Assembly: GCA_001630475.1 (NCBI GenBank)
Contig: KV419434.1
Coordinates: forward strand, 257,953-321,952
Reading direction: 5' to 3'
Source of the DNA: Sistotremastrum niveocremeum HHB9708
Taxonomy: Eukaryota > Basidiomycota > Agaricomycetes > Sistotremastrales > Sistotremastraceae
DNA length: 64,000 nucleotides
Of this stretch, positions 20,400 through 64,000 are shown in pieces (within the stretch, counting starts at the first letter, position 1; each line of letters starts with the position of its first letter). The notes under the pieces are model-generated. The model was not told where the DNA came from and made no database searches. It saw only the letters and a list, made by a program, of their open reading frames with translations. The position numbers were made by a program, and so were the translations under genes.

Positions 20400-23300
20400 T
20401 CACGATGGAGAACAACTTCAGACGATCGGACGCCCACAACGTTCCGTACCAGTATGTCTACTGTACGAAATACTCCTCAGATATTGAAACAAGTTCTTTC
20501 TCCAGTTTTCAATATGACTTGTCTTTGCCATGCGGCGCCGGAATACTCGAGCGGCCTGAATCGGTCATGCAGGAGACGTTCATTTCTTGCAGAACAGATC
20601 CATGACTATACTCGTTTTCGACGTCATTCACTTGGTTTCATGGACCAGGAGTACTGTCCTGTGAGAAGCGTAGTGAGGAGGATTGAGTGAAAAGTCGGTT
20701 TGAAGGAGCGTTGATTCGAAGAACGTACGTTCGCCTTTTTTCTTTCGACTAATGATTGTTCATACATCGAGGCTTGAGATATATGAACCTATCGCAAATG
20801 ATTGGCTGGAGCTCTTGAATTCGGACCGCCCAACGCTCCACCTCACATGTACCCCACAGCGCTCGATGCCCACCTGCCTGCCGACACTCCTGCCTTCCTT
20901 ACTGTTAACGCTCTCGATCTCTGAGTCGCAAGTCATTCAATTCTCGCTCATCATCAGAGAGATATCATGCCGACATATGCAACGTCAATGCCTATAAAGT
21001 GACTTGGCTTCCTTGACGCCTCTGAGAGACGCCGAGGAATGTGTTTGGAACTCGATCGGGTGGACGTCGCGATCGACCAGTCGTATTGCGGCGCCGTTGT
21101 CATGTTCGATACTCACGTGAAGCGATTCAAATCGTCGTCAGCGTTCACCTGGGACTGTTCATCCGTCTGGCTCTCGGACGATCTGGACTGTCTGTGATCA
21201 CTCCACAATTTAGGAGACGCCGTTCACTCTATTTATCCTTGCTTGCGATCCATAAACTTTCATCTGGGGACCCGTAATTGCTTCTGTCTTTCTGTAAACT
21301 ATTAGCATGTCTAGATCTGGCTGATCACGAAGTATAGATATCTTGGTATTGAAACTTCACCGAGCGTGGATCGGGGGGTCATTTTTCTTGGTTCTGGTGT
21401 CCTCCATTTCCCTGGCACACCACATGGTCAAATTCTTTGTCAAGTAATCGGCTTCAGACGAGTGTAGGGTGAATATCACGAAGCGGTCAGTCTACTCCGG
21501 CAGCGTCATTCCGAAGTCGTTGGAGCACTAGGTACTAGTGCTTCTTCTCTCATGCCGTGCCTCGCGTCTTTGCAACCCTGGCAACGAGGCATTTCCGGGA
21601 GAATTGCATGTGGGGTTCAGCGTTGAGGAGTTGGTCTTGTCCAATAACATCCTAGTGTTTAGCGAAACTCCAACGAGGCCCAACACGACTCCCATTTTAT
21701 CCGCCTTTGCTCTCAGATTTCTCGTACCAACGTGCAATCGTATCGCAAGCTTCAGAATGCACATTCTGACCCGATCCAGTCGACTTTAAGATGTTGAGCT
21801 TCACGAAAACTTAGGGGATTAATGATCATGAAATGGCTGAGAGTCTCGGATTCGAGATGCGGGCGCGTAGATCAGGGACTTGGGGGAATCATCGCTCAGG
21901 CTGGATATGTTGTTAGCAGATCGATATCCTTTCCAATGGAATTTGGGTTTGATTCCATAAGTATCAATTCGCTCTCATCTCCCAGCTAGTACTAGCCTTC
22001 CCTCGTACACGAAATCCGCTCTGATCGACTGCCACACTGAAGAAATTCTCGGGCGTCGATGCCCACAGAAAAAGCTGACTCGGCTCCCAGTGTGAATAAA
22101 AGACCGCCACAGAAAGATGACACAATATAAAGACCATAGAGCCACCACGGCGACATTCCATCTCCGTGCTCAGAAACTTTCCCAGGAAGCTTGATGACTC
22201 TGTATTTGCACATAAATTCCTTCCGACTCCGTTTCTTCCGAGTTCAACAAACAAATGTGAGCGTTCACTAGAAGCCCAAGACGCTCTGCGAATCTTTTCA
22301 TTAGATTGGATGTTCAGGGTCGGGAAGAAGGGGGTGAGTCTTCTCTTGGTTTGCTGTGCTTTATTGAGTCTTCCGTTTCGCCCGGATCGGGTCGGAAGCA
22401 AAGCGTCTGTTTCCTTATTCGAGAGGATCAACGCCCATGCCATAGGACTATAGAGCTTCTTATAACGCGGTCCGTTTTGCCGATATTTCAGCACGTGGAT
22501 GGCTACGATGTGGGGAAAGCTGTGAGGAAGGTTGAAGCGCTCGAACTGGTCAGGATTGGTGTTTGGAGTGCCTGGTTCGCGCTCATGAATTCGAAGGTGA
22601 GTCATAGATGTCTTGCTCAGGAGTACATGCCAGATTCTTAATTGGTTGGATGATCTGGGGATGCTTCTATTTATGACGACACTACCCCAACCGAGTCTTC
22701 CGGTGGTTGACAAAGCGAAAGACTAAATGACCAATGACCGCTGACGGCGCGCATTGGTTGACCGTCGGTCGGCCAGAGTGCTAATTGCTAATAGAAGTCT
22801 GCGCGGCATATCTTTCGGAGCGCTTCGTAATTACTGAAGGAGACACTAGGTTAGTATGTCTCTTGTTGATCTGATATTCAATCTTGTACGGACATCAGAC
22901 TATTGTGGTACCTTACTTGCTCGATAATAGACCGATCGCGCGCAGAACCGAGTCACTGGACGGAAGTATATACTTGTTGATTTTAGTTAGTAATATTACT
23001 CAACTAAGAGTGCCTCGTTGGCTTCGTGATGTCTTCATTTGCGCCGAAGCTGTGACGATGCCTCGAATAGCCTGAATGCTGCGCTCTCAATAGAGATATA
23101 TATTCAGTGATGCTCGCTTTTGTACATGGTATCGTATGGGAGATGAAGACGCACTGATCGCTCGTCAATGTAAGCTGCGGTGTACTCGCATTGATTCGTT
23201 GTTTGAGGGAGGGCTGAATATGGCTGTAGAAATTCATTTCTGTCGCCAGCGCAGTCTTTCGTGCTTTAGATGATGTGTGGTATCCAGGTAGTCGTAGCAC

Positions 23301-60924: not shown

Positions 60925-60932
60925 ACCTGACC
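60925..60932. repeat. Target site duplication, left (ACCTGACC)
   Basis: Eight bases, ACCTGACC, directly precede the element. The same eight follow it at 61713-61720. Confidence 0.75.
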
Positions 60933-61712
60933 TAAGGTTCAGCACGGGCTACGGCCATCCGGCTATCCCTGGGGGATTATCCGTGTGACAGGATATCCGC
61001 GTGACAGGATAGCCGTGACAGGGCCCATCCGAGGATCGAGGATCGAGGGCCTGGATTTTCGAGGATATCCGGATATATATTAATATATTTATTATTTTAT
61101 ATATTATTTTACATTATATATATTATTATTTTAATCATTTATATATACATTTTCGATTATATATATTATATTATTTTATTTTTTCGGACCTCACCACAGC
61201 CTGCAGCCTTCATCCAGCCCTACATCCAGCCATCCATCAGCCAATCCATCCCCAATCCATCTATTTCCGCCCCTAGTAGTCTTCTCATAGTGTTTAGACA
61301 GTGTCTTGAGGTTGTTGAGGGAGGTCGTCGATGAGGAAGGGGGTGGATTCGTCGTCTGAGGCCGGTCGGTGGTGTTGGAGAGAGGCTGGGGACGAACAGC
61401 TGAGTTCGAAAACAAACCGCGCGTTGTTCGTTGATCGAGTTTGATCAAGTTTGATCACGATCGGATCGCGGGAACACATATGTAAATAGTGAAAATAATA
61501 TATATATTAATATATATCAAAACAAATAATATTAATATTAATATATATTAAAACAAATAATATATATATTAATATCCTAGGATGATCCGGATAATCTCGG
61601 ATATCCCCGAAAATCTCGGATATCCCCGCCATTTTATCCGAGGATGGGGGATGGGCCTCCGAAAATTTCCGGGGATATCCGTATCCGAGGATATAGCCCG
61701 TGCCGAACCTTA
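60933..61712. mobile_element. Non-autonomous hAT-like element (MITE), 780 bp
   Basis: The ends are TAAGGTTCAGCACGGGCTA and TAGCCCGTGCCGAACCTTA, imperfect terminal inverted repeats of 19 bp, flanked by an 8-bp duplication ACCTGACC. An 8-bp target duplication is the hallmark of the hAT superfamily. Both sides just inside the ends carry repeated GGATATCC-type subterminal motifs. The core is AT-rich (about 61,075-61,185 and 61,491-61,575), with a short non-AT patch between that has no transposase domain. Copy A, aligned across the site, lacks it, so it inserted after or independently of that duplication. Confidence 0.8.
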
Positions 61713-61720
61713 ACCTGACC
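61713..61720. repeat. Target site duplication, right (ACCTGACC)
   Basis: Second copy of ACCTGACC, immediately after the right terminal repeat. Confidence 0.75.
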
Positions 61721-63892
61721 TGTATGATCTCAGATTATCCGACCGATTGGCATGTACTCCTGAACAAGATAGCTATGTCTCACCTTCGAATGCATGAGCG
61801 CGAACTGGGCACTGAAGCAAAACGATCCTGACCTTTTCCGGCGCGTCAATTCGTCACAGCTTTCCCCACATCGGAGACATTCCACGTGACGAAATATCGG
61901 AAAAACGGACCGCAAAGTAAGAAGCTCTCTGCTCCTGGTGCATGGGCGTTGATCTCTTCCAATAAGGAAACAAGGAAACAGACGCGTTGCTTCCGATCCG
62001 AACCCGAAGCAGGCGAAACGGAACATTCATTAAAGCACAGCAAACCACAGGAAGACTCAATCCCTTCTTTTCGACCCTGAACATCCACGATATGAAGGAT
62101 TCGCAGAGCGTCTTCCAGTGAACGCTCGTTTTGTTGAACTCGGAAGAAACGGAATAAATTCATGTGCAAATCTAGAGTCATCAAGCTTCCTGGGAAATTT
62201 CTGAGCACGGAGATGGTCTGTCGCCGTGGTGGCTCTATGGTCCTTATATTGTGCCATCTTTCTATAGCGGTCGTTCATTCGCACTGGGGGCCGAGTCAGC
62301 TGTTTTTGTAGGCATCGACGTCGGAGAATTCGTTTAGTGTAGAAGTCGATCAGAGCCGATTTCTGGCATGCCTGAAGTCTAGTACGAGCTGGGAGATGAG
62401 AGGAAATCGATACTTCCAAATCAAACGAGAATTCAATCGGAATAATCTGCTAAGAGCATAAATGGCCCTAGCGATGATCTCACAGTTGACCTGATTTACA
62501 CGGCCGCATTCCCAGTCCGAAATTATCTGACATTTCATGATCACAGATGAGGTTCACTTTGCGTAAGGTTCAAACGAACAAAGTCGATGAGATCGGGTCA
62601 AAATGTGTATTCTGAAGCTTGCGATCCGATTTCATTAGAGCAAGAGAAATTCGACAGGAAAGGCTAATAAAATGGATATGGTGGTGGCTGTCATTCGGCT
62701 TCAACGAACACCACGTTTTTATTGGACAAGGCCAAGTCCTCGATGTTGGGCCCCACATCCAATTCTTCCGGGAGTGCCTCGTTGCCAGGGTTGCAAAGAC
62801 GCGAGGCACGGCATGAGAGGAGAAGCATCAGCCAGCTGGTGCTACAGCGTCGTAACGACGATGCCGGAGTAGACTGACCGCTTCGTGATCTTGAATCTAC
62901 ACATGTCAGAAAACTGATTCCTCGAGAAAGGAATTGACCATGCGGTGCGCCAGGGAAACTGAGGACGATAGAACCAAACAAAACGATCCCATATCCAAGC
63001 TCGCTAGAAGTTTCGGGTTCGGAATATTGGTGCTTCGTGATAAGCCAGATCTAGACAAGTTGGTTCAAGGAAAAATATAGAAGTAATCGGGAGTCCCTGA
63101 ATGAGGGTTTATAAAGCGTAAGGGTTATCTTTGACGTGTGAAGTGCGAGAAAATCAAGTGAACGGCGTCTATTAAATTGTGGAATGACCAGACACAGTCC
63201 AAGTCGTATGGGAGCCAGACAGATGAAGAGTAACAAGTGAACACTGACGATGAATGGATACGCTTCGCGTGAATATCGAAGATGGAGACAGCGCCACGAA
63301 ACGATTGGTCCCTCGCAAGGCCCATCCCGATCGACTTTCAAACACATTCCTCGGCATTTATCAATGGCGTCAATAAGTCATCGTATAGACATTCGCATCG
63401 AATATGTCGGCATGATTCGATACGAGATGTCCTAGGTGATTAGCGAGAGTTGAATGACTTGCGTCTCAGAGATCCAGAGCGTTAACAATAGCAGTTCCAG
63501 AAGGGTCGGCAGGGCATGCAGGCATTGAGCGCTGTGGGGCGAGGTGGAGCGTTGATCAAAGGAGAGAATGGGGGTTCGAATTCAATGGCTTGATCTCATC
63601 GTTTGAGATGGGTTCATATGTCTAAATTCACACAGTATTAGTCATTCATCAGTCGACAGAAAGAGAGCGTGCCCCTCCGTCATGGCCAATGCTTTCTCCG
63701 AACAAGCTCACTTTCCTCGAAATGAATCGATACTCACCTTGAATAGATCCGTTAGCCAGCCACATTATTAGCTTCAGAGGAGGATGTCGAGAAAAGAAAC
63801 AATGAAAATCGTCTGAAAGAAATGAAGGTCTCCTGCATGACCGATTGAGGCCGCTCAAGTTTCAGGGGGAAAGTCATAATGCACCCATCACC

Positions 63893-64000
63893 TTAGGTTA
63901 GGTTAGCGGTTAGGTTAGCGGTTAGCTCTTAGGTTAGGTTAGGTTAGGTTAGCGGTTAGGTTAGCGGTTAGGTTAGCGGTTAGGTTAGCGGTTAGGTTAG
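63893..64000 (+). repeat. Telomere-like repeat, TTAGG mixed with TTAGCGG
   Basis: From 63,893 to the window edge the sequence is built of TTAGG and TTAGCGG units, mostly as TTAGGTTAGCGG, with one TTAGCTC variant and a short run of plain TTAGG. The G-rich strand reads 5' to 3' toward the right, the orientation expected at a right chromosome end. Because the window stops here, I cannot tell a true terminus from an interstitial tract. Confidence 0.75.

What the first reader, a model, noticed from the sequence alone, without database searches (positions are those of the whole stretch)
63893..64000. Unusual telomere-like repeat: TTAGG alternating with TTAGCGG
Most agaricomycete telomeres are built of TTAGGG. 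Here the tract is mainly TTAGGTTAGCGG with plain TTAGG runs and one variant. The orientation and the neighbouring duplicated subtelomeric block support a chromosome end. If genuine, the telomerase RNA template of this fungus would differ from the canonical one, or the tract is a degenerate subterminal array.
Basis: partly seen in the sequence, partly recalled or inferred. Interest (0 to 1): 0.7.

Follow-up and report, generated by a model that had tools for sequence, protein, structure and literature searches.

The report
Fungal telomere with two-part repeat
The chromosome ends of this fungus carry an unusual telomere in which TTAGG and TTAGCGG units mostly alternate, found at many contig ends, which suggests that its telomerase copies an unusually long template and often slips on it.

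Summary
Window 63893-64000 is a tract of TTAGG (S) and TTAGCGG (L) units reaching the last base of contig C41. The 12-mer TTAGGTTAGCGG is packed at 14 of 222 contig ends, G-rich strand outward each time; (TTAGGG)3 has no match in the assembly. Of 191 units in the 14 tracts, 176 are exactly S or L. L is mostly followed by S (LS 53, LL 5); S is followed by L or S (56, 37) without memory. Odd units lie inward (p 0.006). A telomerase RNA-binding domain is encoded, and helicase frames lie near three of the 14 ends. Best reading: a genuine telomere whose telomerase RNA template spells both units and allows re-annealing one unit back. Bombus TTAGGTTGGGG with stray TTAGG is the nearest described mechanism. 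The telomerase RNA gene was not identified; C14:466801 is a weak candidate. All 14 tracts stop right after TTAG: assembly stopping where copies diverge, or a fixed 5'-CTAACC end. Species not identified. New variant of a known kind.

The parts
63893..64000 (+). Telomere tract, G-rich strand 5'->3' towards the contig end; units S S L S L x S S S S L S L S L S L S + TTAG (S = TTAGG, L = TTAGCGG)
63893..63921 (+). Inner exact array SSLSL
63922..63928 (+). Single odd unit TTAGCTC, with 12 complete units between it and the terminal TTAG
63929..63996 (+). Distal exact array SSSSLSLSLSLS
63997..64000 (+). Terminal TTAG; the same terminal phase as at the other 13 telomeric contig ends

Best explanation
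This is the chromosome end of a fungus whose telomerase adds two kinds of unit, TTAGG and TTAGCGG. Shown: the tract ends the contig, G-strand outward, at 14 contig ends; units mostly alternate; L is followed by S in 53 of 58 S/L steps, and S by L (56) or S (37) without memory of the unit before. Inferred: the telomerase RNA template covers at least one full S+L pair (12 nt) plus an annealing stretch, and the sequence GGTTAG can anneal at two places on it. Copying runs through S then L; after L the end re-anneals at the 3' site and S is made next; release after S followed by re-annealing gives S runs; rare annealing at the inner site gives LL.
For: 14 telomeric contig ends, uniform outward orientation, 0 (TTAGGG)3. 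176 of 191 units are exactly S or L; transitions SL 56, LS 53, SS 37, LL 5; within-tract shuffles give LL 18.2 and alternations 73.4 against 5 and 109 observed, 0 of 20000 shuffles as extreme. P(L|LS) 28/43 and P(L|SS) 18/31, p 0.63, as expected if every S is an independent continue-or-release step. The 15 odd units sit inward, mean 12.0 against 8.6 units from the end, p 0.006: renewal from the tip. TERT RNA-binding domain on two neighbouring stretches, E 6.4e-20 and 6.8e-8. Helicase frames 2.3, 0.2 and 7.7 kb from the tips of C63L, C77R and C88R, one of them RecQ-like by sequence, as described for subtelomeres of Agaricus bisporus var. burnettii and other fungi (PMC7473861 passages). Precedent for irregular extra TTAGG from alternative annealing in Bombus (PMC9841428 passages).
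Against: No telomerase RNA with this template was established. Only 14 of 222 contig ends carry the searched tracts, and by these searches no contig has one at both ends. Tracts are short (40-140 bp); if longer telomeres exist, the distal part is not assembled. Helicase frames were found near only 3 of 14 ends, and not near the window's end. No reads, TRAP or hybridisation data are available.
Confidence: 0.83

Rival explanations
1. Degenerate subterminal array: the S/L tract lies inside a different true telomere (for example TTAGGG) that the assembly lost.
For: Tracts are short, 40-140 bp, and contigs could stop before the real end.
Against: (TTAGGG)3 has no match in the assembly; odd units are enriched on the inner, not the distal side; every one of the 14 tracts reaches the last base of its contig.
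Confidence: 0.07
2. Two telomerase RNAs (or a single short template TTAGCGG with frequent skipping of two bases) instead of one two-unit template.
For: Both unit types occur; an L-only 16-mer CGGTTAGCGGTTAGCG exists at C5:134463.
Against: Independent sources or random skipping predict no alternation, whereas LL is 5 against 18.2 expected and alternations 109 against 73.4. Dependence on the last unit fits one template with both units in fixed order.
Confidence: 0.1
3. Assembly, linker or library artefact at contig ends.
For: All 14 tracts stop exactly after TTAG (log10 probability -10.6 for a random cut), so something other than a random break set the last base.
Against: Tracts differ from end to end in unit order and length, join different flanking sequence, and carry inner variants; an adapter would be constant.
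Confidence: 0.02

Closest known systems
Bombus TTAGGTTGGGG telomeres and their telomerase RNA (PMC9841428, passages read)
   Same: Composite repeat with TTAGG as its first part; irregular extra TTAGG units in TRAP clones and interbands attributed to alternative annealing.
   Different: Insect, 11 nt, rest of the unit TTGGGG; telomerase RNA identified and TRAP done. Here 12 nt, second unit TTAGCGG, telomerase RNA not established.
Aspergillus oryzae and relatives, TTAGGGTCAACA telomeres (PMC10100673 section 7; PMC10767889 passages)
   Same: Fungal 12-nt repeat that begins like a canonical unit.
   Different: Ascomycete; second half unrelated to the first, and no two-unit alternation is described in what I read.
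Basidiomycete telomeres: mostly TTAGGG, variants TTAGTG, TTAGGA, TTGGA, TTAGGGGG (PMC10100673 section 7); Malassezia template changes (PMC12506658 section 9 part 1 and section 13)
   Same: In Malassezia the repeats vary by changes in the telomerase RNA template and by sliding of the annealing site.
   Different: The motifs named there are single units; none is given as two unit types in alternation in the text I read.
Mammalian and Ustilago maydis C-strand 5' ends (PMC6167521 passages)
   Same: Telomere C-strands stop at a preferred base of the repeat; mammals 5'-CTAACC, which is also how all 14 contig ends read.
   Different: U. maydis prefers 5'-AACCCT. Here the phase may reflect where the assembly stops, not the natural end.
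Subtelomeric RecQ helicases of Agaricus bisporus var. burnettii (PMC7473861 passages)
   Same: Helicase frames close to the tips of three of the 14 ends here; one matches RecQ helicases by sequence.
   Different: Found at 3 of 14 ends only; the three frames are distant from each other (22-31% identity).

Membership tests
Telomere of a linear nuclear chromosome | Same short tandem repeat at many sequence ends | tested here: met
   14 contig ends; only 4 internal 12-mer hits, against 8 for the reversed control
Telomere of a linear nuclear chromosome | G-rich strand runs 5'->3' towards the end at every site | tested here: met
   within tracts, minus-strand hits only at contig starts and plus-strand hits only at contig right ends
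Telomere of a linear nuclear chromosome | Repeat forms the physical DNA end (BAL-31 sensitive, reads stop there) | not testable with these tools
   no reads or DNA
Telomerase-maintained telomere | Telomerase reverse transcriptase encoded | tested here: met
   PF12009 at C17:593650-594161(-), 76 and 37.3 bits over a cut-off of 25; it rang in none of the 14 control genomes, so there was no positive control
Telomerase-maintained telomere | Telomerase RNA with a template complementary to the repeat | tested here: inconclusive
   Template-like loci listed; C6:1074781 lies in an intron between two in-frame exons and C5:228214 in an open frame; C14:466801, C38:134670 and C5:134463 unresolved; Rfam on six loci gave two irrelevant matches below gathering score
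Canonical TTAGGG telomere | (TTAGGG)n at chromosome ends | tested here: not met
   0 matches to (TTAGGG)3 in the assembly; 8 for the reversed control
Composite repeat from one template with alternative annealing (Bombus-like) | Extra short units interspersed in an otherwise regular long repeat | tested here: met
   SS 37 and LL 5 among mostly alternating units
Composite repeat from one template with alternative annealing (Bombus-like) | Template RNA identified and TRAP ladder with the long period | not testable with these tools
   no RNA or enzyme data

The most novel reading that the evidence does not exclude
One telomerase RNA carries two non-identical repeats in a single long template with a built-in inner re-annealing site, so that telomerase makes a memoryless continue-or-release choice after every TTAGG; the G-strand thereby gains a CpG in every long unit, which a fungal cytosine methyltransferase could methylate, and the C-strand is trimmed to 5'-CTAACC at all ends, as in mammals and unlike U. 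maydis.
Probability: 0.2. Interest if true: 0.72.

Novelty: new variant of a known kind. Interest (0 to 1): 0.5.

Why it matters
The basidiomycete telomere motifs named in the survey text that I read are single units. A two-unit repeat records at each chromosome end how often telomerase continued, released or re-annealed, so the enzyme's choices can be read from sequence alone. The CpG in each long unit raises the question whether the telomere itself can be methylated.

Tried and rejected
LL-only or SS-only templates were not searched systematically. Non-telomeric loci found (lengths): C1:1442612 (12 nt), C5:228214 (15), C6:1074781-1074798 (18), C14:466801 (14), C5:134463 (16, L-only), C38:134670 (14), and a satellite on C6 at 1145448, 1145482, 1145641 and 1170789 (16 in L053 and L058). 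By my hand estimate about three 14-nt matches are expected by chance at even base composition. Rejected: C6:1074781, the longest, because it lies in a 50-nt intron (L011 1471-1520) whose removal joins two open frames without a stop; Pfam gave no match for either exon and the PDB none for the second, the only one searched there; that they look like an ABC-C transporter is recalled, from no call. C5:228214, because it lies in an open frame (Pfam LRR match below cut-off, E 0.0017). C5:134463 could spell only L units. C14:466801 (L013) is intergenic, downstream of an FKBP_C gene, and has a complementary pair GGGACAGA/UUUGUCCC, found by eye, that overlaps the template on its 5' side; its template is not specially unpaired (0.67 against region 0.48; the coding locus L010 gives 0.87). 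Weak candidate only. C38:134670: 0.49 against 0.39.

Paper searches for the repeat: (20 of 3094 listed; 20 of 40 listed), no listed title is about telomeres. Listings were used to choose papers; most of those papers were not opened.

Full report
Observation. The last 108 bases of the window, 63893-64000, consist of TTAGG (S) and TTAGCGG (L) units with one odd unit, TTAGCTC. The window is C41:257953-321952 and C41 is 321952 bases long, so the tract ends the contig. No other array of three or more exact units occurs in the window.

Genome-wide. The 24-mer TTAGGTTAGCGGTTAGGTTAGCGG has 26 hits in the 34.7-Mb assembly of 111 contigs, all in terminal tracts at 11 contig ends; the reversed control pattern has none. 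The 12-mer has 63 hits: 59 at 14 contig ends (C6R, C22L, C25L, C27L, C40R, C41R, C43L, C49R, C53L, C63L, C71L, C77R, C81L, C88R) and 4 internal, against 8 for the control. Tract hits at contig starts are on the minus strand and at contig right ends on the plus strand, so the G-rich strand points outward each time. (TTAGGG)3 has no match, its reversed control 8. The tool says that its counts are lower bounds. I fetched seven further contig ends (C1L, C1R, C5L, C5R, C6L, C14L, C14R): six have no tract and the 10 kb of C5L are all N. The remaining 201 of 222 ends were seen only through the pattern searches, which would miss a pure TTAGG end.

Grammar. The 14 tracts hold 1171 bases and 191 complete units: 112 S, 64 L, 4 TTAGTGG, 3 bare TTAG, and 8 single odd units. 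Transitions are SL 56, LS 53, SS 37, LL 5; steps that touch an odd unit are left out of these four. Shuffling S and L within tracts gives 73.4 alternations and 18.2 LL, against 109 and 5 observed, with 0 of 20000 shuffles as extreme. After S the next unit does not depend on the unit before: L follows LS in 28 of 43 and SS in 18 of 31 cases, p 0.63. The 15 odd units (TTAGTGG included) lie on average 12.0 units from the distal end, against 8.6 in shuffles, p 0.006. A tract renewed from its tip looks like this. Not every odd unit is inward: one TTAGTGG is the last complete unit of C6R.

Flanks. The tracts join different sequence. Among the last 10 kb of the 14 ends, BLASTN at E 1e-10 and 150 bases or more finds five matches, for instance C41R-C63L, 632 bases at 90.7%, and none is common to all ends. 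Of ten long open frames from the end loci that I scanned (ten of the 14 longest listed), three carry DEAD and Helicase_C domains, all at telomeric ends: C63L about 2.3-4.7 kb, C77R about 0.2-2.1 kb and C88R about 7.7-9.1 kb from the tip. The C63L frame matches RecQ helicases of the PDB, best E 1.4e-26; the other two were not searched there. TBLASTN with the three finds them only at these three ends, not at the other 11 telomeric ends, the six readable non-telomeric ends, or elsewhere in the window. Subtelomeric RecQ helicases are described in Agaricus bisporus var. burnettii and other fungi (PMC7473861, passages). The same scan found Transposase_21 at the non-telomeric C6L and Helitron_like_N at C27L.

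Mechanism. A TERT RNA-binding domain is encoded on C17. The simplest mechanism is one telomerase RNA whose template spells S then L (12 nt) plus an annealing stretch, with two places where GGTTAG can anneal. Full copying gives SL; release after S and re-annealing at the 3' site gives extra S; occasional annealing at the inner site gives LL. This step is inferred. The precedent is Bombus, where TTAGGTTGGGG telomerase products contain irregular TTAGG units and TRAP interbands explained by alternative annealing (PMC9841428, passages).

Telomerase RNA. Exact matches of 14 nt or more to the circular 12-mer, and 10 of its 12 possible 13-mers, are covered. The longest non-telomeric match, 18 nt at C6:1074781-1074798, lies in a 50-nt intron between two in-frame exons. 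C5:228214 is in an open frame. C14:466801 is intergenic, downstream of an FKBP_C gene, and could spell GGTTAGGTTAGCGG, but a 14-nt match is within chance by my hand estimate, and folding does not single it out. C38:134670 is a 14-nt match upstream of an open frame. C5:134463 spells only L. So no gene is claimed. The basidiomycete telomerase RNAs that I read about are from Ustilaginales and Malassezia (PMC10035886 passages; PMC12506658 abstract, section 9 part 1 and section 13).

Terminal phase. All 14 tracts stop right after TTAG, log10 probability -10.6 for random cuts. Two explanations remain. TTAG is the point where S and L diverge, so an assembler working on cells with different tips would stop there; I think this the more likely. 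Or the contigs stop at the natural C-strand end, 5'-CTAACC, the mammalian position, while U. maydis prefers 5'-AACCCT (PMC6167521 passages). The assembly alone cannot decide.

Print. Full-text searches for the repeat and its complements (20 of 3094 and 20 of 40 papers listed) show no listed title about telomeres. The TelFinder survey, as read in its abstract and section 7, gives TTAGGG and single-unit variants for basidiomycetes (PMC10100673). Its supplementary table and the TeloBase tables were not read, so the motif may be recorded there.

Verdict. A genuine telomere of a composite type that I found in no fungus in the text I read, a new variant of a known kind; the template gene remains to be found.

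Noticed in passing
window 60934-61711: The right copy of the inverted duplication is interrupted by about 0.8 kb (60926-61747 against 33 bases at 22633-22665); the insert is bounded by inverted 18-base ends, 17 of 18 matching, at 60934-60951 and 61694-61711, like a small non-autonomous DNA transposon with an AT-rich core.
   Followed up: partly
L053 1498-1720 (C6 about 1145.4-1145.7 kb) and L058 (C6:1170740-1170860): Internal satellite built of telomere-like words, 18-bp unit GGTTAGCGGTTAGGTGAG with variants, about 28 and 53 kb inside the telomeric right end of C6.
   Followed up: partly
L011 1498-1515 (C6:1074781-1074798): An 18-nt exact match to the telomere repeat inside a 50-nt intron (L011 1471-1520) of an unnamed membrane-protein-like gene; chance, or a telomeric patch captured in an intron.
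   Followed up: partly
L032 2263-4656, L034 7852-9684, L036 807-2240 (C63L, C77R, C88R): Subtelomeric helicase frames with DEAD and Helicase_C domains at three telomeric ends, one RecQ-like by PDB sequence match; only distantly related to each other.
   Followed up: partly
all 14 tracts: Four of the 15 odd units are TTAGTGG, the C-to-T product at the CpG of TTAGCGG; the complementary product TTAGCAG was not seen.
   Followed up: no
L047 (C5:1-10000): The first 10 kb of contig C5 read N throughout; whether withheld or a gap is not known.
   Followed up: no
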